From contig CAIIXF020000007.1 of the NCBI GenBank assembly GCA_903813345.2, positions 15,544,714-15,608,713 of the forward strand: a stretch of 64,000 nt of DNA, in the 5' to 3' direction. The notes beneath the pieces are model-generated. The model saw nothing but the letters and a program-made list of their open reading frames with translations. It did no database searches and was not told the DNA's origin. How positions within the stretch are numbered: the first letter of the stretch is position 1; each line of letters opens with the position of its first letter. Below are positions 21,301 to 54,300 of the stretch, piece by piece. The stretch is from Owenia fusiformis (taxonomy: Eukaryota > Annelida > Polychaeta > Sabellida > Oweniidae). Made by a program: the position numbers and the translations under genes.

Positions 21301-24300
21301 AGAGATGGTAAAGAATTGATCTCTGTAATTCCTTTATTGGTCATCAACATTTTCAAGAAAACTGTATGGGCCAGAGCAAAAGTAAGCTCTATATAATTAT
21401 CTCATGGCTTTCTCAAGAGAAACTAATAGAAGGTCATAATAGGCATAGCCAGGGGGGTACACCCCCCCCCCAATAACCCATAAAATAAAACCATGAAAAG
21501 AAAAAGAAAAGAGCTTATTTGCATCAATTTTTTGTAAAATTCAAAATAAATCTCATTTTTGGCTTGTTTATGCCACAATCGCACAACCGAACGCACCCTC
21601 TGACTGAAAGCTGGCTATGCCGCTTGCCATGATTTCTCATATTGGTTTCAGTATGATAGTGGAGGCTATGACTTGTGTGGATCTTTGAAGAATAACCTTC
21701 AATAATACAAAGTCTTTCAAGGGAATGATGCTTATATATGGCTATCTTCGTCACTTTACTCTTTTGATTTAGCTTGATGTAAGGCTGCTTGAAATGTTGC
21801 TTGAGACTATGTAAATATATCCCAAGACGAGCACACTCTTGCTTAAAAGGCCATTTCTTGTAAAAAGTAAGATAGTGAGCACTGAATCTGTGAGAATGTG
21901 TGTGAATGAAAGCATATGCAAGTATGGACAGTAATAGAAGCACTTGACCAGTTTGTTTGCCATATCAGTAGAGGTCGAGTTCTCCTTGATCTTGCAAGAG
22001 GTAACATTTCAACAGTATCAGAGACAAACTTATCATATGAACACCTTGCCACCTTATCATGTAAAGACCCTTTCATTGGAAGACCTTATCATTTGAACAC
22101 CTACCACCTTATCATGTAAAGACCATTTCATTGGAAGACCTTATCATTTGAACACCTTGCCACCTTATCATGTAAAGACCCTATCATTGGAAGACCTTAT
22201 CATTTGAACACCTTAACACCTTATCATGTAAAGACCCTATCATTGGAAGACCTTATTATTTGAACACCTTACCACCTTATCATGTAAAGACCCTATTATT
22301 GGAAGACCTTATCATTTGAACACCTTACCACCTTATCATGTACAGACCCTCTCATTGGAAGGCCTTGTCATTTGAACACCTTACCACCTTATCATGTAAA
22401 GACCCTATCATTGGAAGACCTTATCATTTGAACACCTTACCACCTTATCATGTAAAGACCCTCTCATTGGAAGGCCTTGTCATTTGAACACCTTACCACC
22501 TTATCATGTAAAGACCCTCTCATTGGAAGGCCTTGTCATTTGAACACCTTACCACCTAATCATGTAAAGACCATCTCATTGGAAGACCTTATCATTTGAA
22601 CACCTTACCACCTTATCATGTAAAGACCATCTCATTGGAAGACCTTATCATTTGAACACCTTATCATGTAAAGACCATATCATTGGAAGACCTTATCATT
22701 TGAACACCTTATCATGTAAAGACTTAATCATTGGAAGACCTTATCATTTGAACACCTTACCAGTGGTAAGTTACCACCTTATCATATAAAGACCCTATCA
22801 TTGGAAGACCTTATCATTTGAACACCTTACCACCTTATCATGTAAAGACCCTATCATTGGAAGACCTTATCATTTGAACACCTTGCCACCTTATCATGTA
22901 AAGACCCTATCATTGGAAGACCTTATCATTTGAACACCTTAACACCTTATCATGTAAAGACCCTATTATTGGAAGACCTTATCATTTGAACACCTTGCCA
23001 CCTTATCATGTAAAGACCCTATCATTGGAAGACCTTATCATTTGAACACCTTAACACCTTATCATGTAAAGACCCTATCATTGGAAGACCTTATCATTTG
23101 AACACCTTGCCACTCATCATGTAAAGACCCTATCATTGGAAGACATTATCATTTGAACACCTTAACACATTATCATGTAAAGACCCTATCATTGGAAGAC
23201 TTTATCATTTGAACACCTTAACACCTTATCATGTAAAGACCCTATCATTGGAAGACCTTATCATTTGAACACCTTACCACCTTATCATGTAAAGAGCCTA
23301 TCATTGGAAGACCTTATCATTTGAACACTTTACCACCGTATCATGTAAAGACCCTATTATTGGAAGACCTTGTCATTTGAACACCTTATCACCTTATCAT
23401 GTAAAGACCCTATAATTGGAAGACCTTATCATTTGAACACCTTATCATGTAACACACCCGGGAATTTCGCGTCATAATTATTCCTCCCCTAGAGGCGCTA
23501 TGAGCGGGCGGCCATTTTGCCGGTCAATTCGGGTCAAATATTGTCCAACTTTACACACGATTTTCTAGTAGTTGATGCTGCCCTTTAACGTATCCAATGA
23601 TTTGTATATAAAGCTTACATGTATCTGAATTAATATATTTTTATCCTGTGCAGTTCAAACAATTCGTTTTCTTCCAACTCTATTATGGAATTACATCATA
23701 TTTTTTTCGAAAATCGGCGGTAAAACTTGACACTGGTTAGCTATTTTTTCTCTAATTGTAATTTGAATTTTAAAATTCCGCCTCGGACAAGACACAATTT
23801 GTATATTTAGCTCAAACGTGTTTCAAATTTGATAAAGATTCATCCATAAATGAAGAAATGCCACCGGCGCAAAAATGTTGTGTTTTTATCAAATCTTTGC
23901 TGACGATGCGGTTTCTAGTTTACGAAGAAATTGCCCCTCCATAGTGAAGCCGTAACTTTACTAATATTGAACCTATAAACTTGAAATAAACAGGATTAAA
24001 ATAAGCAATTCTTTAGAAACACGATGATATGTATCATGCCTATTTAACAATATATATTATGAAAGAAAATCATAGTTTAAAACACCTATCTGAATAGAAA
24101 ATTTCATTGCAAACATGAAAAAATGACGGGTTGTACTTATACGTCCGCGCGATGTTTATACACGTTGCATAGGACGTTGCTATGCACAACAGCGCACCAA
24201 GCGGAGGAATAATTATGACGCGAAATTCCCGTGTGTGAAAGACCATATCATTGGAAGACCTTATCATTTGAACACCTCACCGCCTTATCATGTAAAGACC

Positions 24301-27300
24301 CTATTATTGGAAGACCTTATCATTTGAACACCTTGCCACCTTATCATGTAAAGACCATATCATTGGAAGACCTTATCATTTGAACACCTTTTAAAACACC
24401 TTATCATATAAAGACCCTATTGCTGGAAGACTCTGTCATTGGAAGGCCTTATCACATGAAGACCTTCTCAGTTGAACACCTTTGACTATACATGTATTAC
24501 CATTTATTTATTTATTTCATTTTTTAATCATTACGTATTTTCAAAATTAACTTTTCTAATCATGGGGTTGATAGTTTAGTCCATTGGTTTGTTACAAAAT
24601 AAACAGTTGTGTTTATTTAGACTGAAAAGATTACTTTATGCATCACTTAGGGCCTGGTTGTAATCCAAACCTGGCTCTGCAGGTACCATCAGACAAATTG
24701 CATCAAATGTTGTCTTTGTACCCTCCAGTTACCATGGTAACCAGAGGGTGGCAATTATTGTAGATCACTATTGAAAGCTTTATGAGAAAACATCAAGATA
24801 AACTTGGGTAACTTATCTTAACTTTGGGAACCATGGTGAACTTGAATTAATTTCATATACACCCAATTCCAGTGTTATGTGGAGAATTCCATTATTTTTT
24901 ATAGGGAGGTTGTAACTAAAGGTTAACGTGGTTTAATGTAATCAACAAATTGTATTGTTGATAAATATGGTAGATGGTAGTAGATGAAGGGACCTCGTCC
25001 TATTTACTTTTCTCTCTTTGCAAATCTTTCCAAAAAAAACAAAGACATATTCTCGATTTGACTTAGAATGTTAAGGGCCTAAACAATGATATTACAGATC
25101 ATTCTTTCCAGGATCATATGCATGATCAAAGAGGTTTGAGATCTAATCAGCTGATTGTATCTTTATTCCATGTCTTGACTGCTTCATAAATTGTGTACAA
25201 ATGTTTCATGTTTGCAGGTTCTGTAAACATGAGTGCCTTAACATCTATTTTGTGATAATATGTTATCCTTATTCTTAAAGTCTAAACTGGTTCTTTGCCT
25301 GTGGTTATCTTGAAATCATAATTCATTAAGTTTATCTTAATGGTGTTAATTACATGCCAACTTCAGAATGTAGGCCTCTGTGGCAATATGGAGCAGTTAT
25401 TATATAAATTTATAGAATCCTTAAATATTGTGTTAGGGGGTCAGAATACCCTTTATACATAAGCTGTCGACACCAACCTCTGAGAAAGACAGTTGATTTT
25501 ATAGTTTTGATACTGTAATTTTCACTGGCTTTTATGGAAGGTTGAATGTGAAATGAATTTTGCTACTTAACCAAAAAGTTGAAAATTGAGTAACTAATGT
25601 TTTCATAATCGTCATCATATGAAAACATTTTAAGTGTCATTCTGCCAGACCTACCTTAATGATTTTACTCATATTTTGATTTCCAACTGATACATCTCCA
25701 TTTTCTAATCAAATGATACTATAACATAACATTGAGACATACTTCTTATATTGTAATATACACATATTACAAATATATTTTTAAAGGAAGATATTTTTAA
25801 CCTCTTGATTCCTAAAATCAGTTGACACTAGAGAATTTTTCATATTTGCCAACTTTTGCCATTTTACTACATATACATACAACAGGTGATGCTTAATATA
25901 GTGAAATTAGTCAGCAGATATCAATTCTACACATTTTCTAACGTTTTGTGTAATTTGGATGAAATTTGTGAGCAATTTTCGTGAAGAAATTGTGACCCTA
26001 GGTTACAAGGTCATCTCTTAGGTGACGAGATACTTCGTCACTCTGGGTAGAAAGACTCTCTTCTGTGATTCATTGAATACTAATATTCTCAAAGATCATG
26101 GCCAACATCAAAGAACATATGCACTCTGCATTTCCTTGAGAGATAGAACATATTCATTTGACATTCATCTCTCTTTATGTTATCATTGGACATGAGAGCT
26201 TCAAGTGAAATCCAGGTTACATGCATGATCATTACCAACACTTACATACACATATATTTTGTTAAGGTAGGGAGAGTTAAATGTTGAAATGTATTTCTTT
26301 GCAGTAAATTGTATCCACAAAGAGATTCAGTGGTTGGCGTTAAGTATCTGTAACAAATGGCTAGTGGTTACTTTTCGCATGTCAATGCCTTGTTATTGAA
26401 AATGATATGTGCATGCAAGGGAAACCTTTCATGAGTTCTAGGATAAGTGCTATGAATGATATAATATACATGTACAGGGTGGTCCAAAAAAAATTGGAAC
26501 ATTTGTTAATTGAACGCAAAACCTTTATTTTTCTTCTAGAATGTACCAAACTTTTACTGAGCATAGTTCAGTCACTTATTTATCTGATGTAAAGTTTATA
26601 GGTGAAAACCTCAAAGTTAATGCATTAAACTAGTCAATATTTGATATGACCCCTCTTCTCCTGACTTACAAGTTGAAGCCTGGGGCTCAGATTTGTAAAT
26701 ATTCAATTAGTTTGCTGTTCGTTTGTTTTGTTCAAGCCATCTCAATTAAAAATTTCAGCTTGATCAAACTTCCTATTTGTTTGCCTTGGAAGATCAAATC
26801 TAGTAACATATTTAACATTTTTTACCCAAATTCATGAGTATCAAGCATATTTTGATGGCTATTGTTGGGTGTATTACTGATTGAATATTCTCCAGAAAGA
26901 GGCCAGGGCAGTCTGATTTGACTGGTAAATGAAGCCCCCGCCCCTTAATTGTTCTGATATGAATGATATCCATTGGATATATCAATATGTCTATCAAAAT
27001 CATAGAGAGAACACAAATGGTATATTATTAGACTCCAGATTGAAAATCTGGAGTCTATTGTTTTTGCCTGTTTTCTTATTATTATTATTCTTTTTTCTTC
27101 CTCCTTGCCAAATTTCTCGTCAACTATAACAGCTTACTTAATCCAACTTACATGGTTAACTTAAGACTGTATCCGGCTTTCTGGGAAATTAGGTCAAATT
27201 TTTATCTAGGTCAAAGGTCAAGAACTAGGTCAAATCCAGTACTTTGTCACTTTTTCCCATTATCTCAATCGTCCTTCAATATTTTTGATCCTGGTTTTTT

Positions 27301-33300: not shown

Positions 33301-36300
33301 GGTTGATCACAACAGATCACAAGCAAAATTAGAATATGACATAATTTACCACGATGCTCTGTATAATATTTGCCTACCTTTTTCATGCCAAACAATGATA
33401 GCAATTCATCTTGATAAAGTTGATGATAAAATGTATAGAATGCAACAATGTTCTAACAAAGTATATATCCTTTCAGAACTAGCAGATCAGGCCCCCAGTT
33501 TCCAGAGAATTTTGCAAGATGTACAGGCATTTGAGGGGGCATCAGCCAGGTTTCGCTGCAAGGCACAGGGGCAGCCTCGGCCCACAGCCACATGGTAAGC
33601 TGTACACTAAAAACTGAGAAAAATGCACTGGGTCCTAATATGCAAAAAATATAAATAGAATGGACCCAATGTGTTTTGGGTCTTAAATGATGCTGTCAGT
33701 GTTCCAGTACCATGTTCGAATCATTAGTCATAATACTCAATCTAGACCTACCTTAATTTTGTTCCATATTAAAAGATATCACTGTAATCAATGTTGATTT
33801 TAAATACTTCTGTTCGCTCTTGAAAGCTTGGAATTGAATCTTTGTTGTATATGTTTCTTTGCTTTGCTCGATGCAACAGAACAACGATATCAAATTATAA
33901 GGAAGTGAGCTTGCCACTTTCATTTATTGCAAAAAGTACAGCATGGTATTATGAACATGGAAAATACAAGTCACATTAAGTAAAAACGCAGGTAACGATA
34001 CTGAAGATCTAAACGTAGCCCTATTACATGATTAACTTAATAGCATGAAATAGCGTTAAATGAAATCGTTAAGACTTGACGAATCAGCTAAATATACATT
34101 TATCGAAATTGATTGATCCCGGCCATTAAAAACCTCAAATTAATGCGGAAAAGGTACGCGATCAATCAAAGACATGTAAATGTTCCAAATCTTGGTTTAA
34201 TTAATTAAAATGAACTGTCTCGTGTTACGTGTGGCAAAGCTCAGAATGAAGTTACACTCCGTTCCAACATACACTCATGCAAAACAACTCATCGTCAACT
34301 CGAACACCTGTTCCATTAACACGACGCCTAAAGAAATCATTTATGAGCTTATGTCGCTGCGCTCAAACGCACATAAATGTCAATTATAATATACATGTAG
34401 GTACAAAGATGGGGTGCAGCTAGAGGCAGGAGAAAAGTATGCTATATCAAGCCATGAAGGAACCCTCACTCTCTATGTACATGACTTGACAGGACATGAT
34501 GCAGGCCAGTACACATGTCAAATCTCCAATGATCTGGGCAGTTGTAGCACAACAGGAGATCTCATAGTGCAAGGTAGACATCTAGCTTTAACTCAGAAAG
34601 AGTATGATTCTGAAAGTCATTTACATTGATCGATTCACACATTCAATGGGACAATCGCTCATTCAATCCATACAGGCTGTCATGGTACTCAAAGTTTACT
34701 TTTATTCAATGTATCATGATACTCGAAGTATAAACTCAAATTACCATTTTACTCAAAGTATAATTTTACCAATTCTATATACCTTGATAATGACTCAAGG
34801 TATTAAAGTACAAAATATACTCATGTCAATGTATCATGATGCTCAGTGTAAGCTTACACAAGACTGTTTCTTTCCAGGTGCTGGAGCGATGAGACGTAAG
34901 AGAGAATCAGAAGATCACTGGGAGAAGAGCAAGATAAAACTTCAGAAATATGATGTCCCAGATCTACCATTTGAATACACAGGGACAGCACCAGTGTTTA
35001 ACCTCCCCCTAATGGGACAGACTGTAAAGGCAGGCCGTAACACTGAGTTCACAGTTTGTGGTAAGTAGGCTTGTTCCTTATAACTCATTTTGATTCATGT
35101 TTAGCTCCTTTTAAGGTACTGCACTATTTAGCTCCCTATTAAGTAATTGTATTATTCATATAGCTCTTGATAGAGATTTCAAAGTAAATTGAGTTTTTAT
35201 TATGTTACCACCAGAAACGGTGACCTATTGTAGTCTCCATCTTTTTTGATGGTGTTTGGTGTTCAGTGTTTGAAATGGCCATTGGTGTTTGGCATCCGTA
35301 ACAAATTCTTGTGGCATCTGTAACAAATGACAGGCAGTGACATCTTGCATGTTTATGCCTTGCGTTGTATTGAAATACATGTACATTTCAGTGACATGTA
35401 CACCTGAGGCTGAACTAACCTGGTTCCATAATGGCTCCAAGATTGAGGTCAATGACAAATATGGTTTGGAGGATGTATCTGGGGTTCACACATTATACAT
35501 CAAGGGCACAAGTGCAGAAGACGCAGGAGAATACAGTTGTCTTGGTCAGAACTCTTACGGCCAGGCCACCACCAGTGGTGTGCTTACTATAATAGGTAGG
35601 TGACTTTAAGGACATGCATCAGATCTTCTTTTTCATGAACAATTTTTTTCTCAAGCTTAAGTTGCATTTAATTATATGCTTGCATTCATCCTCATTTTTA
35701 TGTCACCACCAAAAGTGGTGACATATTGTTATGGTCTCCGTTTTTTTGACTTTAATTTTTTTCTAAATCATCTACATGTTCTCAGAAGTTCAAATCTGAC
35801 TTTAGATTTGACATTTGACCTTTAATGACCTTCTCAAGGTCAAAAAGGTCTTTTTTCAACTTGCTTCACATTGACTAAATTTTTTTTCAAAATCATCTAC
35901 ATGTTCTCAGAAATTCAAATCTGACTTTAGATTTGACATTTGACCTTCAAATCTGACTTTAGATTTGACATTTGACCTTCAATGACCTTCTCAAGGTCAA
36001 AAAAGGTCAAAAAGGTCTGTTTTCAACTTGCTTCAAATTGACTCAATATTTTTTTTAAAATCATCTACATGTTCTCAGAAATTCAAATCTGACTTAAGAT
36101 TTGACTTAAGATTTGACATTTGACCTTCAATGACCTTCTCAATGTCAAAAAGGTCTGTTTTCAACTTGCTTCAAATTGACTAAAAAAAATTTTCAAAATC
36201 ATCTACATGTTCTCAGAAATTCAAATCTGACTTTAGATTTGACTTAAGATTTGACATTTGACCTTCAATGACCTTCTCAAAGTCAAAAAAGGTCAAAAAG

Positions 36301-39300
36301 GTCTTTTTTCAACTTGCTTCAAATTGACTAAAATTTTTTTTCAAAATCATCTACATGTTCTCAGAATTCAAATCTCACTTTAGATTTGACATTTGACCTT
36401 GAATGACCTTCTCAAGGTCAAAAAAGGTCAAAAAGGTCTGTTTTCAACTTGCTTCAAATTGACCAAATGTTTTTTTCAAAATCATCTACATCTTTTCAGA
36501 AGTTCAAATTTGACTTTACAAGTTCTCAGAAGTTCAAATCTGACTTTAGATTTGACCTTTGACCTTCAATGACCTTCTCAAGGTCAAAAAGGTCTTTTTT
36601 AAACTTGCTTCTCATTGACTAATTTTTTTTCAAAATCATCTACATGTTCTCAGAAGTTCAAATCTGACTTTAGATTTGACATTTGAACTTCAATGACCTT
36701 TTCAAGGTCAAAAAGGTCTTTTTTCAACTTGCTTCAAATTTACTTAATTTTTTTTTCAAAATCATCTACATGTTCTCAGAAGTTCAAATCTGACTTTAGA
36801 TTTGACATTTGACCTTCAATGACCTTCTCAATGTCAAAAAAAGTCAAAGAGGTATTTTTTCAACTTGCTTCAGATTGAACAATTTCTTTTTTCAAAATCA
36901 TCTACAAGATCCCAGAAGCTCAAATCTTCAAAAACCTTCTTAGAGTCAAAAATTATTTTCCAACTTGCTTTAAATTGACCAAATTGTTTTAGGTGGTGAC
37001 ATTTTGTCATGTTAATGCCTTGCTTTTATTTTGATACAATGGGAAGAAATATGAACATGTACATACATGAAAATGTTACTGCCAAAAATAGTCACCGTGT
37101 CCAAGTCACATAAACTTTTTGAACTTTAGAAATTTATTTTAACCTTTTTGGCCTTTTCAATTGCTCATTAGAACTTGTGTTGGCAGCTTGAATGTTATTT
37201 TTTTTATTATGTATGTTGTGTTTTGTATCAAGACTTTATTATACATCAAACATAATATAAGAACTACATAGTTAATGTGTTTCTAGTAGGAAGCCAGACT
37301 TACAAGTGTCTGCTATAAGCATGGTAATCTCAGTTAAGGGTATCAGATATCTTACATGTCTTAATGACCAGAACTGAAACCAGATACATAACATCTCCCT
37401 TCTTTTAGTTTAAAAACAAGTTAAACTTTTAACAGTCATCTCATTGAAATATGATCATTACTTATTCTGAATATTTTGTAAGGGAGCTCATTTAAACTTT
37501 ACAAGCCATGTAATTTGAACTATCTGACCTGTCTCATGAACTTTAGTATTCATTGATAAAATGTCCAGTGCATATGTTTGTACTACATGCTAATGAGGTT
37601 CTTGACCTAAGAGTTTACTACAGTCTTACTACAATGTTTATTTTGATATGCTAATTTGGTCTATCCTTGACCTTCATTGCAAATATGGATATTTCCATTT
37701 CACTTCCAGTCTTGGGTCTACACTATATTATTGACAGTCATTTCACACATTTTATGCTGGAATTAAATGTCTCCTATTCCTTCTAAATTGTCCTCCATCT
37801 GGGGTTTCAACTAGATATGATCTGGGCGAATCTAGTTTCTCAGTCACTGTTGCATTTCTCCAGATGTATTTATTGTTCCTTTTCTCACGGACTTTGACAG
37901 GGGTATTAGGTTGAAGAGGGGCAAGGGGACGAGCGCGGAGGTCATACTTTCTCTTCTCCATCTGCTTTTTCTGCTGAAGTTTTGTGCAAACGTTGGGATC
38001 TGGGCTTTGGGGATTCAGTAGAACACCACTGGTAGGAATTTTAGATCGCAATTTTCTACCCATAAGTAATTCTGCTGGGGATTTGTTGATCTTCGCATCA
38101 ATTGGGGTGTTTCTCAAATTCAGCATGGCTGTGAAAATATCATCCGATTTTCTGATAATATTTTTTACAGTCTGTATTGTCCTTTCAATTTGGCCATTGC
38201 TATTTGCTAGATTCGGGCTTGATGTAGCAATGTCGAAGTTGTAGTCTTCGCTGAATTTTACATATTCTGATGATTGAAATGGTGGACCATTGTCACTGAA
38301 TACTGTTTGGGGAATACCATTTCTGCTGAACGAGGCTTTTAGGCAATTTATTATGGGTTTTGCCTTGGTGCTGGTGAGTGAGTACAGCTCAGGGTACTTG
38401 CTGTAGTAGTCTACTCCAATTAGGTAATCCTTGTTATTATGTGAGAATAGGTCAACACCTATCTTTTCCCAGGGGCGCATAGGAACCTTATGTGGAATCA
38501 TAGGTTCTCTTTGATTGGCATTTCTGTGGGTTTTGCAAATGTCACAGTTTTTTATCATATCCTCGATCTGGGAATTCATGTTGGGCCAAAAGAGTGTCTC
38601 TCTTGCTATGGATTTTGTTTTAACGATTCCCATATGGTTTTCATGGATAAGCGACTTTACTTCGTCTCTCATTGATGTGGGAATTACCAGTTTCAGGCCT
38701 TTGAACACGAGACCATCAACTGTACTAAGTTCATCATGAAAGGTGTAATATGGCATGACTGACTCATGTATATCAGTCTTTTCAGGCCATCCAATTCTGC
38801 AATATTCCATAATGCGTTGCAGTACAGGGTCATTCGAGGTCGCGTTCCTGTACTCTTGCTGTTTTGGTTTAGACATGGGTAAAGCTTGAAGTAATCCATC
38901 TGCTTGTTGATCAATGTCGTTCATGATAGAAGCAATAATTTTCGAGCTTTCTGTGTCACTGTCTACGCATGCTCTGCTGAGAGTGTCTGATATAACCATG
39001 TCTTTTCCAGGTTTCCACTTGATTGTGACATCGTACTTTTGCATTTGCAAAAGCATTCTTTGTAATCGAGCTGGGGCTTTATTTAGAGCTTTCTTTGCGA
39101 TCACCTCCAGGGGCTTGTGATCAGTTTCCACGACAAAGGGCTTACCATAGAGGTATTGGTGAAACTTAGTTGCTCCAAAACATATACTCGTCATCTCTTT
39201 CTCTATTTGGGAGTAGTTTTGTTGGGCAGGGGTTAGCGATTTTGACGCGTAGCATACAGGCATATCATCCTGTAGTAGGACAGCTCCAAGACCATCTTTC

Positions 39301-42300
39301 GAAGAGTCTACATTCAGCACTGATGGCTTATTGGGGTCATAAAACTTGAGAACTGGCGCTGTAGTTATAAGCTTTTTCAGCTGCTCATAGGCTTCTATCT
39401 GTGGCTTATTCCATTCGAAAATAATATCCTCTTTCAGTAGTTCTCGCAAGGGAGCATTTAGCTCTGATAAGCGTGGTACGAACTTGGCAACATAATTCAC
39501 CATGCCAAGGAATCGACTCAGTGATTGTTTATCTGTAGGGGTTTTCATCTCAACTATCGCTTTTATCCGATCACCCGGGATACTCAGTCCATCTCTCGAC
39601 CATGTATGTCCTACATATGTGACTGATGGCACATTAAACTGGCATTTCTTCCTGTTAAACTTGAGGTTGTTCTCACTTGCTCTTTGGAACACTGCTTCCA
39701 TTCGATGCTTAAGCTGTTCTTCATCTTTGCCAGAAATCAATATATCATCCACTTGGACTTCAACGCCATCTATTCCTTCTAGGACTTTACAAACTTCCAT
39801 CTGGAACTTTTCAGTAGATATGTTTAGTCCATATGGCAGACGTGTAAATCGATATCGTCCAAAGGGTGTGTTGAAGCAAGTAAGCAACGAACTCTCGTGA
39901 TCAAGTTCAAGTTGCCAAAATGAGGTTGTCGCATCCAATTTGGTAAACCTCGTAGCACCTTTCAATCTTGTGCTGATCTCTTCTGTTGTGGCCGTAGGGT
40001 ACGGTTCCCTTTTAATAACTTTGTTGAGGTTTGCAGGATCAAGGCATATCCTAAGAGATTTGTCGCTCTTCTCAACCAAAACTATATTATTCACCCAATC
40101 AGTGGGCTCATCCACTTTGGCAATTACTCCTTGTTTTTGCATTCGCTCTAATTCAGTTTTCAATTTGTCTCTCTGATGAACAGCTACCTTGTAAGGGGGG
40201 TGTACCACAGGCGTGACATTTTCTTCAAGGGTAATGTGCACTTTGCTAGGCAGACAGCCTAGGCCTTCAAATATGTAGCTGTAATTAGATACCAACTGGT
40301 CTGTGGTCAGTGTGCTGTCAGAGCCAACTGTAGAAATGTTACTTCTGGAAACTAAGCCAAAGAGAATAGCTGATTGCAGACTAATTAAAGTGTCAGCTTT
40401 CTCCTTAATGACTATGAATTTCACTTTGTAGTTTATCCCTTTGAAGTAACAAGACATATGACATTCACCTATGACGTCCAGGGGCTGCCTGTTGTAGGTA
40501 AATAGCCTTGTGGTAGAAGCTTTCATAGGGGGGTGTCTTAACCTCTTGAATAGTCCATGTGAGATCACATTGGCCTGGGCACCTGTGTCCACCTTAGCAG
40601 TAAGGGTGTGCCCACCTGTTTTTAGTCGTATAATCCAGGATTTGGAGTTGGGTATATCTGGGGTTTTGGCGGGAATCTGGGCTATCTTTGATGTCTGGGT
40701 GTCTGGGATTTCAGTGGTTACAGATCCCAAGTACACTTCATCTTCTGAAGATACTGATTCCTCCACCTGGTTCACTTTTCGGGGGTTTCTACGTTTTCCA
40801 AATTTGCCTTGCCTCCGTTGTCTAGAGTCCTTTTCACTAGATTTCCCACTACGGCAACATCTTTTAAAATGCCCGAATTTTAAACATCCGTTACACTGCT
40901 CATTAGCCGCAGGACACGTGCCTCCTTTATGTATCAGTCCACAGTTGTCACACCTTTGTGACTGCGACTTCTTTACAATACTGACTTCCTCATGTCCACT
41001 TTCTGTGCGGGAATTTAGAGAGTTCTTATGGACGTTACTCTGCTCATATAAGCGTGCTATCTTTAGAGCATGGTCTAATGTGAGGTCCTCCTCGTATCTT
41101 AGTAGCTTCTCTTGGACTTGTGTTGAATGGCAATGTGTCAATATCATGTCAGCGATCATCTCGTCAAGATCGGGGAATTTACAGTCTCTGCCAATAAGTC
41201 TAAGTTTTGTAACAAACTCGTCAATAGACTCATCCTTCAACTGGTAGCATTCATAGAACATTTTCCTCTGGATCGACCTGTTTTTCTTGGGTGTACAATA
41301 TTCCTCAAATTTATCAAGGATGGTTTTAGACTCCTTCTTTTGTGATTCCGAAAGTACCCCAGTGGCAATCCACGATCTGCAAACGTCCCTTCCTTTCTCG
41401 CCGATGAGAAGGAGAATTTGAGCGGCTTTCTCTTGCTCTTTCCATTTTGTGGCATCAGGAGAATCAAACATTAATTCAATAAGTTCTCTCCATCTCTTCC
41501 AATCTTCTGAGAGATTAGGGCCATAAAAGTCTAATTCCTTCACTATCTTTGAGTATCCACTTGCCATTGTTATTGTCTCTGATCTACTTATTCATGTGAG
41601 ACCACATCTGACACCATGTTGTGTTTTGTATCAAGACTTTATTATACATCAAACATAATATAAGAACTACATAGTTAATGTGTTTCTAGTAGGAAGCCAG
41701 ACTTACAAGTGTCTGCTATAAGCATGGTAATCTCAGTTAAGGGTATCAGATATCTTACATGTCTTAATGACCAGAACTGAAACCAGATACATAACAATGT
41801 ACATTGTAGTGATTCGATTAAATATCATTATGATAACATTTTGTGTGTCAAAAAGTTCCAAACCCATTATGAAACATACTTGCCCCAAATCTACATCTCG
41901 AAAATAACTAACAAGAAATGATCTACATTGCTACAAAATATAAATAAGATAAAATAATGAGTGGCCATGTATATATTGCAGAGGAAGTAGCAGATCACCA
42001 TATACACCCTGAGTTCAGCACTAGGTTACATCGGATGCACATCTCAGAGGGTCAAGAGGCAAGATTTGAATGCCACATCTCTGGGGAACCAACCCCAGTT
42101 GTGCACTGGTATGTGGGTTTGTTATATGCATGATAACTGTAAGTCTTGGAACAGCCACCTGGATAACACTCACATGGGGTTAGAGGAGAAATAGATACAA
42201 GGGGAAAGTGGCTTCATCCAAAAATGATTGGGACATCCACTCGTCTGTTTGTCAGTCCATCTGTCTATCCATCATTTTTATGGGGAGACCAACTTGGGGA

Positions 42301-45300
42301 TGCTTTCCCATCAGAACAGTTTAATTGTTCCAGACTACAACATAACATATTCCTCTATTCTCTATCTGAGAGGGTCACTGATATGGAAATGAGGTTCTTA
42401 AGTCAGATATTGTTTAAAGTAGGTGGTATAGAAGCCAGGTACCATCAATCCCTGAGACACTCTTGTGTGTTGTAGATAGTAATATTTAATAAACAACAAA
42501 AGCTTGCCTTGAACTTAATGACCTGTTTTATATTGATACATTTATAGCACATAAATATTATTGTTTATACTATATTGAGTGCAATTGTTTGATAGTAATG
42601 CACTTGTTTGTTAAATTGCAGGTACAAAGATCGCAAGCTAATACACGATGGTCATCATTATAACATATCTTTTGATGCTGATACACAGTGCCACCTATTG
42701 GTCATTGAGGAAGCGATGTATGAGGATAATGGCTGGTTTATGTGCCGTGCATCAAATGAGGCGGGCACGGAAAGTTCCGAAGCTAGGCTAACAGTAGATT
42801 TCCCAGGTGAAGAAATTACCCTGAGCCTATCAGTCCCTTGTCCATATATCTTACCCTGGAAGGGTGTGCCATAATATAATTTAGTTTTTGACTTACTCTG
42901 ATAGTTTGGGCGGAGGCAAGTTTGTCACCGATAAAACACTTGACTCAGCTAAATGACAATGTTTTTTTAAATACTTTGGAACGAGCCAGTTCTCGAGTTT
43001 ATCTCATTGTGCCACTTACGGAATTATTATAAAGAGATTACAAGATATTATATGAGATTTCAAATGATTAATCTGACTGTCTAAACACAGTTCTGATAAA
43101 TAGCTTTATTTAGATTTTCAAGTGTTGTCCAATTCATAACACTGGAGAAAGGTGTATTTATGAGTGGCCCAACTACATGTATTATTCTTAATACATCTTA
43201 TATTTACTATAATATGGACAGTTTACAAGTGTCATCAGTGCAAGTGAATTATTATTATAGAGGATTGCCTTTGTAAGTTACATAATTAGTAATTTAAAGG
43301 AATAGTGAGAAATGTCCGCGATGAAACCTAGAGGTCAAGAACTCTATAACTTTTTAAATTTCATTTTGGAACATTATTAGTTATTACTAATTGATAATCA
43401 TTGGTTTTACTGGATATAAATACAAAATGTGATTTTCAAGTTGAAATTACTAATAAATGTATGCTGAATTTGAAAGAAAAGTACTGATGGCAGATGCTTT
43501 TTAAATTATGGATATGATTATACATGTGCAGGAGATAAATAACAAGATGTAAATGTGTCTTTAGGTTCTGAATGGACTGAAAGATTCTACAGCAGGAGAT
43601 GCTCTGATACAACTTCTCAAAGTAGCTTAGATAGGATCAGCTTCAGCAATCATAGCAGGTCTCAGTTTCACTATGCCACCTGTCCCACCTTCACAACCAA
43701 ACTACGGAGCAAGCGCGTTGAGGTTGGGATGAGCGTGACATTGAGTTGTTCAGCAACTGGAACACCGATGCCATCTATTCGGTGGTTCAAGGATGGTGAA
43801 ATGATTACTACTGGAGGAAGATTTATTGTAAAGGTAAGGTGTTAATATTAACTCATTTATTGGGGTGTTGAGTCTTTCTCCTCGGCTAGATTTTTTCAAG
43901 CCTTGACCTTTTGTACCTCTAAGGAAAGGGATTGCAAGGCCTGAAATATAGGTCAAGACCACAAATTATTTAAAACATATTGTCATACTGTTATCAATAC
44001 TATTGATAATATTGCTGATAGGTTTTTTCACTGTCACATACTCTATTGATATATTGAACTTCCTATCATATGGTTGAAAATTAACTTTTGAAACTTTGAC
44101 ATTGAAAGTAGTTGGTATCCAATACATAAATCATACTAAAATAGATAGCGTTAAATCAGTTGGACTTTTTTCATTCATGATATTTTGCAATATCTTTTTA
44201 TTGGATTTTATAACTACCACCATGGGCTTTTAACAAGAGAATTCCCATTGACTACAAAAAGAGGGTATCCTTCAAAATCAGTGTGTAAAGAGCAGATTTT
44301 GGAAGGGAGGTGTTTAGCCAACCTGTGGATGACCAAAATGTTGGGACAAAATTGCTGCCCAGTATTTGAAAACAATAATATCCTCTGTCCCCCCTGGTTA
44401 TTTCCCGATTTCATGTAATGTGTTAATTAGATAAATTAAATATGATTTTTTTGATAATATGGACCCAAAAGTAAACATAACATAAATGTATCAATCGTAA
44501 AACTCTTTTCACATGTATACACAAGAGTTCTACCTATGTAGTTCACCTTTGAAACAATCAATTGACAATTATTTCAACAATCAATTTAGAATGTAGTGTT
44601 AAAATAAATTGATTAAGTAGCTATATCTCTTCAATGGTACTATGCAACTTGATACAACTTGACTCTGTAAACATTCAACAGTTAGAAAGAGATGTGTAAG
44701 CCCTTCATAGACATTTCATTGTCTAGTTGTGTTTTGGTCCAACTTGGACAAGGAGGGAGGAGACATTTTCAAATTTTATTGAAGTGAAGCACTGTATTAG
44801 TCTAATTCAATATATTACAAGGGTCTTTCGATCATTGAATGCTTTCACTAAACTCTATATTTTGACCTGACCCCTTAACAATCAAAACAGCACAATTTCA
44901 ACATCAAAGAGTTTATTCTATTTGATCTTGAAATTTGTAGTCAGTGTACGTGTATACATGGACTTGCAGTATTATACATGTTCTTGAAACATGAAAAATG
45001 TCACACAACTTTATTATTCCTTGAGATTTATAGATTCTGTAGTATAACAATACAGCAAATACATGCAAATGCGATACAAAACAATTGCATTTCATGAATC
45101 TTAATATATGAAATGTGCTTAAGTATATACATAAGTATAGCATTTTGAAATTGATTGATCTGAATATTTTGTCAAGATGTTATTAAGGAGCTTTCAAAAC
45201 GATGTTATATTAAAGTTAAGTGTTGTCTCTACCATGTTCACATATCTCAGTCGTTGGAATGGAGGTGTCATCATGCGCAAAAAGGAATTCCGATCGACGG

Positions 45301-48300
45301 AACATTCATTTGAACAAGCATTGAGAAGTCTAAGTAAACAATAAGAAAGTGTGAATGTTAGGGTGACCCACCCGATGTTGAGATAACAGATGTCGGCGTC
45401 ATATAAAATAACTGTAAATTAGAGATAATTGACACTCATGGAGATTGTGTAATTATATATATGGTCGTCTTGAATTTATAAAATCATAAAAAATTAATTT
45501 TGGATAATAGAGATATGAATGGAGTTCCAGTTTTCAATAGGTAATATTCTGTTAAGTGTTAATAGATAGTTTTGAAGAAGTTAGTGACGCATTTTGGTTA
45601 GATTTATGCTAAGATTTATGAAGCGACCTTTAATTGAGATAACAGTCGAGAATATATATTGCAATAGTTAGACACTAGTCTTAATCACCAATATGCCTAA
45701 GGCTAACCGTAAACTTAAAAAATTGTACTCAGATTCAGTTATTCTTGCTACCGATGAAACACCGGGAGACCTTGGCGAAATACTTACATATTTGTCAGTG
45801 ATTACATCGAAACTATTGAGATTTGAAAGTAGATTGGAAAAATTGAATCACTTGGAGGCAACAAAAAGTATTTTAGTTGCATCATCTGGAGTTTCTTGCA
45901 ACACATCATCCCTTAGCAGAGGTCAGGTTCAAGATGCTGTCTCTTTGATAACATTAATGAAAAAGGATATCGAAGAAACAGATGGAAAAATATCAAAGTT
46001 AGAGTTCAAAATTCGTGATCTCGAAACGGAAAGAAGAGCAAGTTTAACAAAGCAAAATATTCAATTCATTTTGGACAAAACTGAATTTGAAACCTTAAGG
46101 AAGGAAAATCAAACACTTAAGGAAGACAATGAGTTTCAGGAAATTGAAATCAGTAGTCTGAGAAAAAGTATAGAAGCCATTGAAGCTTCCCTTCAAAGGA
46201 GAAACAGCCAGCTTTTAAAGCTACAATCACATGTCAAAGTCCTGGAATCTGAATTAGAGGCTAAAGAAACTGAAGTAATATTCCTTCAGGATGATGCTAC
46301 CAATCTGCGACATAAATGTGAAGCTCAGTTGGGAACAGCCCAGACCTTACATGCTGTAAACAAGGAGCTGAAAATACAACTACAAAACAAGGAAAGAGAA
46401 CTAGAATCGTACATCCATGAATTTGAAGAAATGGAAAAGTACTACAATTTAGAGGTGGATGAGTTGAATAAACTCACTGATGAACTAGATGTTGAACTGG
46501 AGAAAAAGAATATTGAGATTGGACATATGAGAAATGAACTGAAGTCTGCAAAAATGTCAAAATCAATGAATTATTTTCAGTCAGTATTGGAGGATTCAGG
46601 AGATTGTTCGGAAAAAAGTCTAAAGGATTTAAAGGATTGTAGATCCAATGATTTGGACAAAGTTGTTTCCATGATGATTGAGGGTGAGTCTTGTCATTTT
46701 CCTGTTGATAATGTTAACAGTAACAAAGTAGACTATGATAATAATAACACTACTGCCAATAATGTAGACATGAGAGATGATGATCCGAAAGAGGGGCTGC
46801 CCATAGCACAAGTTAATAATGCTGATGTCTTATCAAGTGAGACAGATCAAATAGAGTCAACATTCACAATATCATTTACTGCCTCTACACAAGATGTTGA
46901 TGAAGATGATCCTGATGCTGATAGTGCTCAGAGCAATGCTCCTGACAAAGTTGATGATGACAAAGCTAACAAGGCTGCAGCATTTACTGTACAATGGGAT
47001 GCCACAACACAGGATGATGACAATGATAACACATTTGTAGTTAACATGAACTCTGGTCATGTTGACGGTGATGAAATGTGTCACGCCAGTGATGAGAGTA
47101 ACTCTGGTGAAGTAACTTTTACATTTAATTTTGAAATTCCTAATCAGGAAGAAGTAACAGGCAATGCAGAAGGAAATGATGGAAAAGTGAATTGTGATGC
47201 CAGTCTGAATGAGTCTAATGAAGTTACATTCACATTGAACATTGATGCTCCTAGTCAGGAAGAAATAGAAGATGAGGAAGATAATGATGATGACAATGAT
47301 GTGTTCTTTGATATCAATGACCCCAAGTATGATTACTCCAGTGAGTTCAGTGGCTATGATGATGATGGTGTACTCTGGACTCCTAACATCTACAGAGTAC
47401 ACAGGTCTTCCTATGCCATGTCTAGTAATTGGGGCTCAATTTCTGACCTCAATACAATTACAGAGGAGGGCCATGACACAGTTGCCACTACGCCAAATGC
47501 CAACCCCAGTAAAAGTGATAGCTCAGATCAGCTCTGTGGGTTTTCTATGAATGAAAGCATTAATGAAGCTGATGAATCAGAAGATGAAACAGGAAGGTCA
47601 ACACCCAAAGAAGATGTTGGATGTGTTAAACTTGAGATCAGCACATCAATTGAGTCCTTGGATATTGGAATAGTTGTAAAATCTGAGGGAATGGAAAAGG
47701 ATGAAGAAGAGGCCCCCTATATTCCCCTTAAAAGAGCCTCTAAGGAGGGTAACTTTGATAATCTATCCAATGAGAACAATGTTCAAAATAATGATACACC
47801 GGAGGTAGAGGGACTAATCAATGAAGGAAAGAGGGATGAACACTCAACATTGAGGAAAATAAAGCCAGTGGATAACCTTGCTGCAGGGGATGACCTAATT
47901 GAACTGGTAACACTCCCACATGATGTCACTCCAAATACATCTAGAAAAAGGAAACGGGGTAGCATCATATCTCCAGATGTTGAAACAGTTGATCTGAAGG
48001 ATCTTATAGAGGATTTTAATAAGAGGATTTCAAGAGAGGAAGAAGGTGATGAGAGAACAAGAGGACTTAGTGGTAATCTCGTATGGGATATTGAAGAGGA
48101 AAGTGGGGTGGATAGCACATTTGAAAAAGATAATGAAAGCAAAGAGAACCTAACCTCAGGAATAGATGATGATAGTGTAGATTCACCTAGAGAAATTGTA
48201 AAATTCTTCATACAAGAGAAGGATGAAGAAAGTGATTTGGATAGCACTGTACAGAAAGATAATAAAATCAAAGAGAATGTAGCATCTGGAACAGAAGACA

Positions 48301-51300
48301 GTAGTACAGATTCACCAAAAGTAGATGTAAAGTTCTTTTTACAAGATGAGGAAGATTCTGATGAATCTGTAGCTGAAACGTTCTATGTGAAAACTCAGCC
48401 CTTCACAGACAATAATGCAATAGAAAGTGGTAACACACATACCATCCTGGACACATGCACGGATGATGAAGTATTCGCACACTCAGACAGTAGTTATGTT
48501 GAAGAGGGCAAGCATCAGACTAGTCCATATGGAAAGTGGAAACAACGTAAGGTCTCAGTATCAAGGAGGCTGGATTACTTGAGTCCACAGGAGTATGAGT
48601 TCACGAAGAAAATAGAGACATTTATTGATAAATTTGGAAATAAAGTAGAAAATAAAAATGTTGCACCAGAGAGGCGTATAAGTCTTGTCATTGGACATGA
48701 TCATTTTACATATGATACAAGACACCAGCCTAAACAAGAGGAAGTAAAAGTACCCAAACCTGGGCACTTAGTACTGCATAGAGAAATAAGACAGGTAAGT
48801 GGTTCGTTCCCTTACATTCAAAATAAGATATTTTTGTGCTTCGTAGTCTATTTTGTTGCATTTATTTTGACAGGATTACCTCAAGTGGTAAGTCAAATCC
48901 TGTCTGGCCCCTTATGTTCTCCACCTCTATGATGCAACAGAGAGGGAGGGAGGGAGGGAGGGAGGGAGGCCAAAGGAATGTGTGTGAGAGAGATGCTATG
49001 AATATTACCCTGGGATTCCCTTAATATACTACCACTTTTATGATTGTGAGAAATAATTGTTGAAAATTAAATTTTAATCGATTCTATTTATGAAGATGAA
49101 GTGTATTCAAACATATATTGAGATGACATTTTTTACGATTATATTTTTATCTCAAGGTCATCCAAATATAGTGATCCAATTATGTTCTTTAGTGACATGA
49201 TTGAGGACCATTCTATTATCTTAACATGTGTTTTAACCATCTAGCTATGAACCTTTCAAAAGAAAACAATTAGGAAATTATAACTACAATGCATGTATTA
49301 AGCAACAAAATCCATGTATAACAATTGTTTTCTGTGGGTACTTTCATTCAATGGTTTGTGAATTTGAGAAAAAATTAACTTCTGTTACAAGGTTAATATA
49401 AATTTAATAGCCCTTACAGGTGATTTTTATGGTTTAAAATAATAGGGTTAAAGTTTGACAATGATGACTGGACTATGAATTAGATATGATATGTATGTAA
49501 AACAATACACACCTATAAAAAATAATATAGCTGAATGTATAGGAAGATAGAGAGTTATATTATGGATTATCGAACTACCATATATCTATTTTGACTTTTG
49601 GGATATGTTTTAAGGTAGACCTTCAAAGAGAGAGATTTTTAGAATTGTAGTTATACCTCGCCATGTTCAAAATGGGTATATTACCTTATCTTTGTAAAGT
49701 ATCCTTGTTACATCTTTCAAATGAGAAGTTAATATAATATTGGGGAAATGTTGTTCAGAAACTTGGAGAAGGATTTTGGAATATCGAAAATCTGATTTTT
49801 TAAATTTAGATATCTGTTTTTCCTGGAGTTGGCATTTTAACCTTTGATCAGATTTTCAAAAAGTGGATGATGTAATGATACTTTCCCAAAAAGTACTTTG
49901 CTTTATTTTGAACCAGGAAATAACATGGCTGGGTATAGCAATTCTTTATAAAATGTGAATTAGGACATTAGCCTTGTGCAGAAAATGGTTTTCACAAAGT
50001 ATGTTATGGTAAGTCCATTGTTATTTTGAAAATTGATTTAATGAATGGAATTTAATGGGAAGTGACATTGCTTCAGATTTAATAATGCATAATCCATGTA
50101 AATACATGTAAGGTTGATTGCTAAATAGCATGTGCTATAATCTGATCATGTGACTTTAATGTATGTAAACATACCTGTAGAAATGTACACAAAGGTCACA
50201 GGTTACTGTACATTAGCCACCTTGAGGAATGGCCATAAAGTTTAAATCAAATATTGTATTCCTACTGGATTTTTATACAACATGGAGAGTGAGAAGGAGA
50301 GAAGCTTCCATTATAAGATATTCAGGAAGTATTGTAGAAGTGAAAGACAGGTAAGTACATTGGAGATAAGTGTAGATACAGTGCCACCTGCAAATAAGAT
50401 GTACCTGTACTTGTATTAGCTGTGAGGATTTCCGATGTTAAAAATCTTAGAATTTACAAGTAGAGGCCTTTTTGACACATAACTGTGACATCAGTAGTTG
50501 AGAGTACACATGTAAATCACAGATCTATCACAGCTGATCACATTATTTTCATTTCATAAAACGGATTAAAATTGACACAATGGATGCTAGAAAGAAAAAT
50601 GAACTTCCTAATTAATTAATGATCTATATGTAATACAGGCTACCTGACTGGAGAGATAAGCTGGTTTCAAGTTTTCAAATCAGTGTATTCCTTCGTGAGA
50701 CCTTTGATCAGTCAACATGTCTATAAATTAGTCATGGAAAAATCTGAGAGTCTAATATCAGTGTTAGATTTGATGATAGGATATCCATGTCAACATTTTT
50801 TCTCAAATGTAAAAAATCATAATTTTTCATTTTAAGAACGGTGTATTTTTAAATCTAGAACCTTGTAACTCAGTTATTGAGGCTCTTAACAATATACAAT
50901 TTTGATGCTTACTTAAGGTCTTAATAACTCCAAAAGTAGGTTTTTGATGCTTATATAAGGAGCTATAAGGCCTTAATAACTCCAAATGGGAGTTTGCAAT
51001 GGAATATATGCCAGCTATTATTTACCTGTACTGGGTTTTAGGGGAAATATTAGGGGGTAGGATATCCAGTGAATATGTTATTTGTCTAATTTCATGTTTG
51101 TCTTTTGCAAAAGTTAAAGTATTCACATAACATCACAAATATCAAGTGTCTCCAAATTGCTACTCTGAGTGTTATTTTTAAATCTTGTTATTTTTATTTT
51201 ATACATTGTTGTTATTTTTAGATTATATTGTCATTTTTAGTAAGAATGATTCAGTCATAGGTTTAGTATTTGTAGGTATCCTGTTTCCTAATTGATAGGG

Positions 51301-54300
51301 TGGTATTCTGTCCAATGGATCTATGAATAACAATGTCATACTTTGTACAGATTAAAACATTTCATGGATCATGATGTAATATATAGTTTGCACAAAAACA
51401 AGAATGAAAACCTCCATTGTTAAGTTCACAAGTGAGTCAAAACTTTAGGTTGCTCTTCAAGTAATTGATTGTCACAATAAAATGATAAAGTTGTAATAGT
51501 TAACACTGCCCTATAGCCAACAGTCAATTCCGAGACACTGCATGGGAGTTTTTTTGTTTTAAACTTATTAACTATTTTATTGGTTATGTCCTGTCCCATC
51601 CCGAAATGGATAATTCCCATCCCGTCCCGTCCCAAAATATTTTTGTCCCATGACATCCCTAGCCAACACCAAAGAAGGGTGATCAACATATTAAATGTCA
51701 TGGTCTTATCTATTGAGGAAGCACAAAATGCAACATAAAAAGGAAATCAATTGAGAATTATAATATCTGTATAGGTTATAGGTAGTATATTGCTATATGA
51801 TGAGCCCAAGTGATATCCCCTATTTAGAGGTTATACCTAGGGGACAAAAGTGTATCTAGTTTATCCAGTTGGATGATCCTGAGGAACATATCAGTAGTTT
51901 ATTAATATGCATGTACATGAAGCAAATTGTTAATGTTAATTTAATTGTTAAATTGTTTGTACTAATGCTAATATACTGTAATCTGATTCCAGAACAAGTA
52001 TGGCCTGTTGTCACTAGAGATCAGCCCAGTGAAGAAGGTAGATACAGGCCACTATACTGTCACTGCACACAATAGTGAGGGAGAAGCCACATGTACAGCT
52101 GAAATAGATGTTGATGGTTAGCAACCTTTCTCTATTCTGTTATTAAATCCCCTGTTCTTTGTTCATTGAAAAACTGATGAATTTGTATAAATGATGTCAT
52201 ATTAATAGCTTGGTGATTACAATAAAGGCACGTGAAAATTCAGAGGGAGCTGTCAAGTCAAACACTACAATGAGTCCCGAAATGGGTCGGGCAAGTCAAA
52301 AGCTTAGTGGGTGATTACAATAGATTACCCCATGCTAGCTAAAAAGGATATTTGTGATGGCATTCAAGTTCAAATATTCAAGAATTTAGAGCTATTGCTC
52401 CTTTTTTCAGATTTTATACCTTGTACCTTAGCTTTACAAAACCAGGAATTTTGTACCCCTCCCCTGCATGATTACTAAAAGAATGCTGAAAAAATAAAAG
52501 TTCTATAATATTGAGCATGTTTGTTGATTGCAGACAGCAAAGTTGTTGATGAATGTGACTATGAAAGACCAGAGTTCCTATCCAGGATACGTCATACTAT
52601 CGCAGATGAGGGCACCCGGGCTGTCTTTGAGTGCCAAGTTATTGGACACCCAATGCCTGATTTTACATGGCAAAGGGATACTTTTGAACTCTTTCCTGAT
52701 GAGAATTTACAAATGACCTCTAATCCCCGTGGTTACGCCAAACTTGTTGTACGTGAGTGTGCTAGTACTGATGCCGGCATGTACTCTTGTATTGCTCATA
52801 GTATTGCAGGTCGGACAAAATGTTCAGCATCCCTTAGAGTTCTTGGTAAGAATTTTTGCCTATTCTATAACATTTACAATTGCATTAAGTGTATAATTCA
52901 CAAAGTATGTAAAAAAGTTAGAGGTTAATTATGGATAACAAAGCATTGAGTAATGATTGACCTAATGTTCATACATTTTGTATATTTAGTATTATTCTCA
53001 AACTCAAGTTATCTCTGTTAGACTATCTCGCTTTGTTGATGAAAAAGTTGGCACAAAACACATTGTTGTTTCATCCCAAATTATTTTTGTTTCTCATTTT
53101 GGTTAGCAAAATTGCATGAAATTACTTAGATGGACTATTTCTTCTACTAATCATCAATTATCTGCTTTTTTGTAGAGAAATCAGGCTACACAGGTAAAGG
53201 AATGGTAATGAAAGGCAATCGGGAATCTCTAAGCTTTTCCAGACGTCCTCTGGACTCCAGCTATTCTAGTCACTCTTACAGTAATAGATCCCATGAATCC
53301 ACCCCCGAGCGAAATGACACCACAGCACGAACACACAGATCCACTGAATCTACCCCCGAGCGAAATGACATCACAGCACGAACCCACAGATCCACTGAAT
53401 CTTCCCCCGAGCATATGGACGTCACAAGACCATTACGGGAAATACAACACAGCAATCTCAGTCATCAAAACTATGAAATGAAATCTGAATCACAAAAACC
53501 TACTGCGCCAATGTTTGCTCAAATGTTACCAGAGACTTTCGAGGCTAAGGAAGGAGAGAATGTTATGCTTAGTGTTCGTATACATGGTGACCCACTTCCT
53601 TCAGGTAATGCTTATAACCAGTGGTTGACATTCCCTAGTCAATCTAGCCCTGGGTCTAGTATAAGGAACCCCCTCCCAAGACAGGTGTATGCAATTGAGG
53701 GCCAGGCGCTACTTCTAAGTGTAAGGGTCCTTGGGGGACCTTATCACAAAGGTGAGTCAATGTAAATTCACTTGTCTTTTTATATTACAATACTTGACAT
53801 TTGATATTACATTATTTTATCATTTTTCATTTCGTTATGACAGTCCACAAATGCAAAGCATACAATTTACAGTGCAGTATTTGTCAGTTTACATGTATAT
53901 TCCAATATTTGTCCGTTTATATTGCAATATTTGTCAGTTTTCAATCCAGGATACAAATACAAAATATGAGGTTTTACATTGCAATATTTGTCTGTGTACA
54001 TTGAAATGCTTGTCAGTTTACATTGCAATATTTATCGGTGTAAATTGTAATAGTTTTCAGTTTATATTGCAATATTTGTCAGTTTATTGCAAAACTTGCC
54101 AAATCTTGTCATCCATGTTACATTATATGACAGTTAACAATATAATACAACAGATTGATAACAGTGAATATATACATCTCTCTTTTACATCACAATACTT
54201 GTCTGTTTTCATCACAATATTCTGCCTCTAACACAGCTGTCTCTATTCAACATGCTCATGATCATGTATACAGGTACAGCATATCTATTTGAATTCTTAA

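What the first reader, a model, noticed from the sequence alone, without database searches (positions are those of the whole stretch)
45693..48794. A 1,034-residue acidic coiled-coil exon hidden inside the intron that splits titin Ig M4
The exon has a clear ATG after an in-frame stop, no acceptor-like tract in front, and a perfect CAG|GTAAGT donor in phase 0 on the titin strand. Exon 22 (51993), which completes Ig M4, is the only exon downstream in the window that begins in phase 0. The simplest model is an internal titin promoter making an M-band-only isoform: coiled-coil acidic head, half of M4, then M5-M9 and beyond, without kinase. Vertebrates have an internal-promoter titin (Cronos) that starts at the I/A junction; an M-band form with its own new head domain is not known to me.
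Basis: partly seen in the sequence, partly recalled or inferred. Interest (0 to 1): 0.9.

Follow-up and report, generated by a model that had tools for sequence, protein, structure and literature searches.

The report
Coding exon inside titin-like gene's intron
A giant muscle-protein gene of an unnamed animal holds, inside one intron, a real 1,034-codon coding exon with promoter-like DNA in front of it; it may start a short new form of the muscle protein or be a separate gene, and RNA data would tell which.

Summary
On the host strand an open frame runs 45672-48932: in-frame TAG just before, ATG 45693, CAG|GTAAGT donor after 48794, 1,034 codons, 22% Asp+Glu. It is coding: codon scores fit only this frame, and a 43-codon internal duplication shows dN 0.26 against dS 0.74. 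New here: the 5' end lies in a CpG-normal patch (45234-45833, observed/expected 1.06, 17 CpG against 3.4 expected) in a CpG-depleted intron (0.2), as a promoter would look in an animal with gene-body methylation. No good acceptor stands in frame before it. Of nine downstream host acceptors that I identified, 51993 is the one in phase 0. But acceptor scores cannot choose: held out of training, 51993 ranks 16 of 192 AGs. Against the fusion: it would carry only the last 41 residues of an Ig domain. The host is a titin/twitchin-family giant whose kinase scores nearer to twitchin than to titin. No relative was found, in a search limited by protein length. No RNA, methylation or comparative data were available.

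The parts
45234..45833 (.). CpG-normal patch over the 5' end of the exon; proposed promoter and start region
   Evidence: CpG observed/expected 1.06 against about 0.2 on both sides; 17 CpG against 3.4 expected; scan P 0.0002 within the intron; top 2.2% of 1,249 windows of the whole window
45693..48794 (+). 1,034-codon exon: helical N-terminal part (about 1-310), acidic middle (311-930), basic C-terminal part (931-1034)
46863..47263 (+). Four copies of the motif FTxx[FWI]xxxxQ[DE], residues 391, 431, 476 and 513
   Evidence: 4 found; at most 1 in 20,000 shuffles of residues 301-930
47946..47957 (+). KRKR (residues 752-755), possible nuclear localisation signal (motif recalled, untested)
   Evidence: read from the translation
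48093..48350 (+). Tandem in-frame duplication, 2 x 43 codons, 74% identical DNA
   Evidence: dN 0.26, dS 0.74
48795..48932 (+). Open continuation past the donor, with a hydrophobic stretch; intron, or the tail of a one-exon gene
   Evidence: purine bias ends at the donor; hydropathy reached by 2.6% of 307 stopless intron stretches
50282..50350 (+). Second ATG-to-CAG|GTAAGT stretch in phase 0 (23 codons); candidate small exon, weakly supported
43596..43833 (+). Host exon with the first half of the Ig cut by the intron (exon start uncertain)
51993..52113 (+). Host exon with the last 41 residues of that Ig; proposed splice partner in phase 0 (exon end not pinned)

Best explanation
The exon is an alternative first exon of the titin/twitchin-like host gene. 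A promoter inside the host intron (the CpG-normal patch at 45.2-45.8 kb) starts a transcript; translation starts at 45693; the donor after 48794 splices in phase 0 to the host exon at 51993. The product would be a 1,034-residue helical and acidic head joined to the last 41 residues of the cut Ig and then to the remaining Ig domains, without the kinase. Shown by sequence: coding frame, start, donor, phase match, poor acceptor in front, CpG patch. Inferred: that the patch is an active promoter, that the splice to 51993 is used, and that the head gives the tail of the giant protein a new partner or place.
For: Coding frame under selection. CpG-normal patch at the 5' end only, exon body depleted. 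In-frame acceptor in front scores below all 22 host acceptors. Donor 9 of 9; a donor of that score is expected in 138 nt with P about 0.013; the purine bias of the exon ends at the donor. 51993 is a real host acceptor and, of 9 identified, the one in phase 0. Eleven other acceptors above the lower quartile of host scores lead to tails of only 0-28 residues. Precedents for internal promoters in such genes: Cronos and telokin (passages).
Against: The fusion would hold only I-set positions 56-90 of an Ig domain, which is not expected to fold alone. Held out of training, 51993 scores 4.9 and ranks 16 of 192 AGs between the donor and itself, so other splice partners are open. Codon preference is nearer to the neighbouring retrotransposon ORF (0.80) than to the host (0.66). 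KRKR stretch and no MEF2 or CArG site in 45034-45750. CpG-rich patches occur elsewhere in the window (9 regions, 3 of them without known repeats). No RNA data.
Confidence: 0.42

Rival explanations
1. An independent protein-coding gene nested in the intron on the same strand: own promoter, giant first coding exon, splice to a short terminal exon between 48795 and 51992, own polyadenylation site. Its acidic, helical, perhaps nuclear protein has nothing to do with the host.
For: The CpG patch fits equally well. Fifteen AGs in the intron score above 51993 when it is held out. AATAAA at 51476 and ATTAAA at 49066, 50565, 51351 and 51690 exist. KRKR and no muscle sites. No half Ig needed.
Against: No terminal exon with coding signal was found; the candidates add 0-28 residues. 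Phase match to 51993 would be chance (about one third or more). No relative of similar length was found although the database holds animal proteins, but the gene may be fast-evolving.
Confidence: 0.4
2. A one-exon nested gene that does not use the donor: 1,079 residues to the stop at 48932, with a hydrophobic C-terminal tail that could anchor it in a membrane.
For: Frame open to 48932; tail hydropathy 2.22 (19 residues), reached by 2.6% of 307 stopless intron stretches; ATTAAA at 49066.
Against: Perfect donor before it; purine bias ends at 48794-48802, not at 48932 (likelihood gains 5.1-5.8 against 0.1); codon score of the tail lies below 99% of ORF windows, though hydrophobic tails score low anyway.
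Confidence: 0.07
3. A cassette exon of the host, included in frame between 43833 and 51993 from an acceptor before 45672.
For: TTAG|ACA at 45671/45672 is in phase 0 with both neighbours.
Against: It scores -1.2 against 1.8 to 11.5 for 22 host acceptors; an insert of more than 1,000 residues inside an Ig; does not explain the CpG patch.
Confidence: 0.04
4. Part of a transposable element or a decaying insertion.
For: An intact LTR element and many repeats lie in other introns; codon preference resembles that element's ORF.
Against: No Pfam match (best E 0.15), no PDB match, no second copy in the window; exon body CpG 0.20, so not young; synonymous changes exceed replacement changes.
Confidence: 0.05

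Closest known systems
Cronos titin (internal-promoter isoform of vertebrate TTN)
   Same: Transcription start in an intron of a titin-family gene, in-frame ATG before a host exon, C-terminal product (passages).
   Different: Cronos starts at the I/A junction, keeps the kinase and adds about 7-12 residues; here a 1,034-residue head, a start after the kinase and inside an Ig; promoter not shown experimentally.
Telokin (MYLK)
   Same: Independent promoter near the 3' end of a muscle kinase gene gives a kinase-free C-terminal product (passages).
   Different: Telokin is 17 kDa, from the last three exons; it has no large new head.
Myorod/catchin (molluscan myosin heavy-chain gene)
   Same: Product of a muscle filament gene with a unique N-terminal domain on the shared C-terminal part (passages).
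   Different: Different gene; the passages call it alternatively spliced and name no promoter.
Twitchin/projectin/TTN-1 and titin kinases (host gene)
   Same: Ig-Ig-Fn3-kinase-Ig order; kinase 270 and 250 bits to the two twitchin chains 1kob and 1koa (Aplysia and C. elegans, species recalled), 233 to titin; AAK and DFG, the canonical form of invertebrate members (passages).
   Different: At least 8 Ig domains follow the kinase, more than I recall for twitchin; Ala and not the Val noted for mollusc twitchins in the ATP pocket.

Membership tests
Internal-promoter isoform of a titin-family gene (Cronos type) | Promoter and transcription start inside an intron of the gene | tested here: inconclusive
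   CpG-normal patch at the exon's 5' end; no RACE, CAGE or chromatin data
Internal-promoter isoform of a titin-family gene (Cronos type) | In-frame ATG joined to downstream host exons | tested here: inconclusive
   ATG and phase-0 donor fit 51993; use of the splice not shown, 51993 not singled out by score
Internal-promoter isoform of a titin-family gene (Cronos type) | Product made of whole downstream domains | tested here: not met
   The first host exon supplies only I-set positions 56-90
Independent nested gene | Own promoter | tested here: inconclusive
   Same patch
Independent nested gene | Own terminal exon and polyadenylation site before the next host exon | tested here: inconclusive
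   Signals exist, acceptors exist, no coding terminal exon recognised
Transposable element ORF | Element domains or multiple copies | tested here: not met
   No Pfam or PDB match; no second copy in the 64-kb window; genome copy number not testable, the genome search gave no answer
Titin/twitchin-family giant kinase (host) | Titin-like kinase with Ig/Fn3 domains around it | tested here: met
Titin (as against twitchin) for the host | Kinase closest to titin | tested here: not met
   270 and 250 bits to twitchin chains, 233 to titin; no tree was built
Titin (as against twitchin) for the host | Long Ig tail after the kinase | tested here: met
   8 of 8 whole Ig constructs matched I-set; the exon 53178-53750 matched nothing

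The most novel reading that the evidence does not exclude
A titin/twitchin-family gene makes, from a promoter hidden between the two halves of one Ig domain, a kinase-free tail isoform with a new, fast-evolving 1,034-residue helical and acidic head; four repeated FTxxFxxxxQ[DE] motifs and a KRKR stretch would let the tail of the giant muscle protein act as an adaptor, possibly outside the sarcomere or in the nucleus.
Probability: 0.3. Interest if true: 0.75.

Novelty: new variant of a known kind. Interest (0 to 1): 0.5.

Why it matters
If the fusion exists, a titin-family gene makes a kinase-free C-terminal isoform with its own large new head, far beyond Cronos, which adds about ten residues; it would show that such isoforms can gain wholly new domains through an intronic first exon. 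If it is a nested gene instead, it is a clear case of a CpG-marked start inside a CpG-depleted giant gene. One splice junction decides between the two.

Tried and rejected
Cassette exon: unlikely on acceptor score. Transposon: no domain, no second copy in the window, wrong CpG pattern. Relative in viral contigs: 19 stretches matched a pattern, none confirmed; in prokaryote genome contigs: 73 matched, none confirmed. PDB: none at E 1. Rfam: none in the window at gathering scores. Small exon 50282-50350 as a second start: striking at first because CAGGTAAGT occurs only twice on the + strand, but donors of that score are as common on the minus strand (5 against 6), its acceptor is poor (-0.2) and there is no CpG patch; left open. 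A phase-1 donor at 46683 could join in frame to 52534, the start of a whole Ig: only a lead. A TRAF-like reading of PxQE in two of the four motifs is recalled and untested. Promoter sites in 45034-45750: no MEF2 or CArG; E-box, GATA, ETS-like and Inr near chance on most strands; TATA-like strings 5 and 4 against 1.4 expected per strand, in AT-rich DNA. The bacterial-type scan says nothing here.

Corrected on re-checking: I had taken 51993 as the best acceptor of the intron (8.2). That score came from a model trained on 51993 itself; held out it is 4.9, rank 16 of 192. The model is weak in general: true host acceptors have median rank 8, and 1 of 19 ranks first. I therefore moved the odds from 0.45/0.37 to 0.42/0.40.

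Limits: the protein search scores only proteins of 0.55-1.75 times the query's length, so a relative annotated within a titin-sized protein would be missed, and one search scored only the 8,000 candidates sharing most words. One search shows that the database holds animal proteins, not that it holds close kin of this species. The host exon list is my own reading of ORFs, splice scores and domains, not an annotation. In one search, 4 of 26 acceptors and 6 of 27 donors that I listed were dropped because the dinucleotide was not at the listed base, so the models rest on 22 and 21 sites. The Poisson P for the CpG patch (1e-7) is post hoc; I rely on the scan test.
Full report
WHAT IS THERE. On the + strand an open frame runs from 45672 to a stop ending at 48932. 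The in-frame TAG 45669-45671 precedes it, the first ATG is at 45693, and CAG|GTAAGT follows base 48794: 1,034 codons, ending in phase 0. The two other frames of the stretch hold 70 and 175 stops. The exon lies in the host intron 43833-51993, which cuts the fourth Ig after the kinase; joined, the halves match Pfam I-set at 3e-25, and the second half alone covers I-set positions 56-90.

IS IT CODING? Yes. Codon scores trained on 1,565 host codons give +209.7 in frame against -270 and -486 in the other frames, which their stops penalise. Codon preference correlates 0.66 with the host and 0.80 with the neighbouring retrotransposon ORF, while host and retrotransposon correlate 0.63, so codon usage does not tie the exon to the host. 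A tandem 43-codon duplication (48093-48221, 48222-48350) has dN 0.26 and dS 0.74; the two other frames show the reverse. Fisher one-sided P is 0.0125, and 0.0076 with one further pair of internal repeats; the samples are small. Four copies of FTxx[FWI]xxxxQ[DE] lie in the acidic part; 20,000 shuffles gave at most one.

DOES IT HAVE ITS OWN PROMOTER? Probably. CpG observed/expected is 0.20 at 43834-45033, 0.20 at 45934-48794 and 0.19 at 48795-51992, with raised TpG, as germline methylation would leave; host exons have 0.42. At 45234-45833 it is 1.06, with 17 CpG against 3.4 expected; a scan test within the intron gives P 0.0002. In oyster, methylation rises sharply after the transcription start and stays on a plateau along the gene (passages of PMC4378273); that this animal is similar is inference. 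Caution: 9 merged regions of the window reach 0.7; 4 overlap self-repeats in part, 2 lie in the retrotransposon, and 3, this one among them, have no known repeat. The ATG-centred 600 nt are in the top 7.2%, the patch in the top 2.2% of 1,249 windows. A young insertion is not a good explanation, because the exon body is depleted.

WHERE DOES IT SPLICE? In front, the in-frame AG (exon start 45672) scores -1.2, below all 22 host acceptors (1.8 to 11.5), so a first exon is more likely than a cassette. Behind it, 51993 is a real host acceptor and, of 9 downstream host acceptors that I identified, the one in phase 0, apart from an alternative AG at 53178. Scores do not single it out: held out of training it ranks 16 of 192 AGs, and over 19 host acceptors the median rank is 8. 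Eleven other acceptors above the lower quartile lead to tails of 0-28 residues; such a short terminal exon is all that a nested gene would need. The donor itself is credible: a donor of that score is expected in 138 nt with P about 0.013, and the purine bias of the exon ends at 48794-48802, not at 48932. The hydrophobic read-through is unusual for intron DNA (2.6% of 307 stretches), so a one-exon gene with a membrane tail stays as a minor rival.

WHAT IS THE HOST? A titin/twitchin-family giant: Ig and Fn3 domains, a kinase at about 10.9-12.4 kb, then at least 8 Ig domains. The kinase scores 270 and 250 bits to the twitchin chains 1kob and 1koa and 233 to titin 1tki, and has AAK and DFG, the canonical form reported for invertebrate members, while vertebrate titin has MAK and EFG (passages of PMC4042850). 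The same passages note Val in the ATP pocket of mollusc twitchins; here it is Ala. 'Titin M4' is therefore a label by position. The species is not known.

RELATIVES. None found: Pfam best E 0.15; PDB none at E 1; protein database none at E 0.01 among 8,000 scored candidates and none at E 1 among 27 candidates for residues 930-1034; none in viral or prokaryote contigs. The database does hold animal proteins: the neighbouring retrotransposon ORF has 123 relatives at E 1e-20 or better among 8,000 scored, Magallana gigas and Lineus longissimus among them, the best at 41% identity. But only proteins of similar length are compared, so a copy annotated inside a giant protein would be missed.

WEIGHING. 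The CpG patch favours a transcript of its own but does not choose between host isoform and nested gene. For the isoform: strong donor, phase match, no terminal exon recognised. For the nested gene: half an Ig in the fusion, KRKR, no muscle promoter site, and acceptor scores that leave other partners open. I put 0.42 and 0.40 (0.45 and 0.37).

IN PRINT. The nearest cases seen are Cronos (passages), telokin (passages) and myorod (passages). Searches (24 papers, 15 listed; 23, 12 listed; 76, 8 listed; 10, 8 listed; 53, 10 listed) showed in their listings no titin-family isoform that starts after the kinase with a large new head; I read passages of ten papers and none in full. Searches for internal promoters or small isoforms of unc-89 held no paper. 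The library is open-licence only, so this absence is weak evidence.

Noticed in passing
window 37213-41796, minus strand: Intact Ty3/gypsy-type element with one open 1,279-residue frame (protease, reverse transcriptase, RNase H, integrase) and identical 181-nt LTRs (37213-37393, 41616-41796), so a recent insertion in a host intron.
   Followed up: partly
window 33551-34700: Another CpG-rich patch (maximum 1.31), without self-repeats, in the intron that cuts the first Ig after the kinase; a second internal promoter or an unrecognised element.
   Followed up: no
window 49982-50008: 27-nt phase-0/phase-0 exon candidate with good acceptor (7.2) and the strongest donor of the intron (11.7), ATG|GTAAGT.
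   Followed up: no
window 45288-45302: Palindrome TTCCGATCGACGGAA inside the CpG patch, flagged on both strands by the terminator scan; could be a binding site.
   Followed up: no
window 46683: Strong phase-1 donor (AGG|GTGAGT) inside the exon; would join in frame to 52534, the start of a whole Ig domain.
   Followed up: no
window 16113-16193: Small in-frame exon candidate with strong splice sites in the long gap after the kinase; may encode part of the kinase tail.
   Followed up: no
window 22029-24482: Large tandem arrays with a 56-nt unit in a host intron.
   Followed up: no
window 53176-53751: Host exon with a Ser/Arg-rich linker and a 51-nt tandem repeat (53286-53412); the exon gave no Pfam match.
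   Followed up: no
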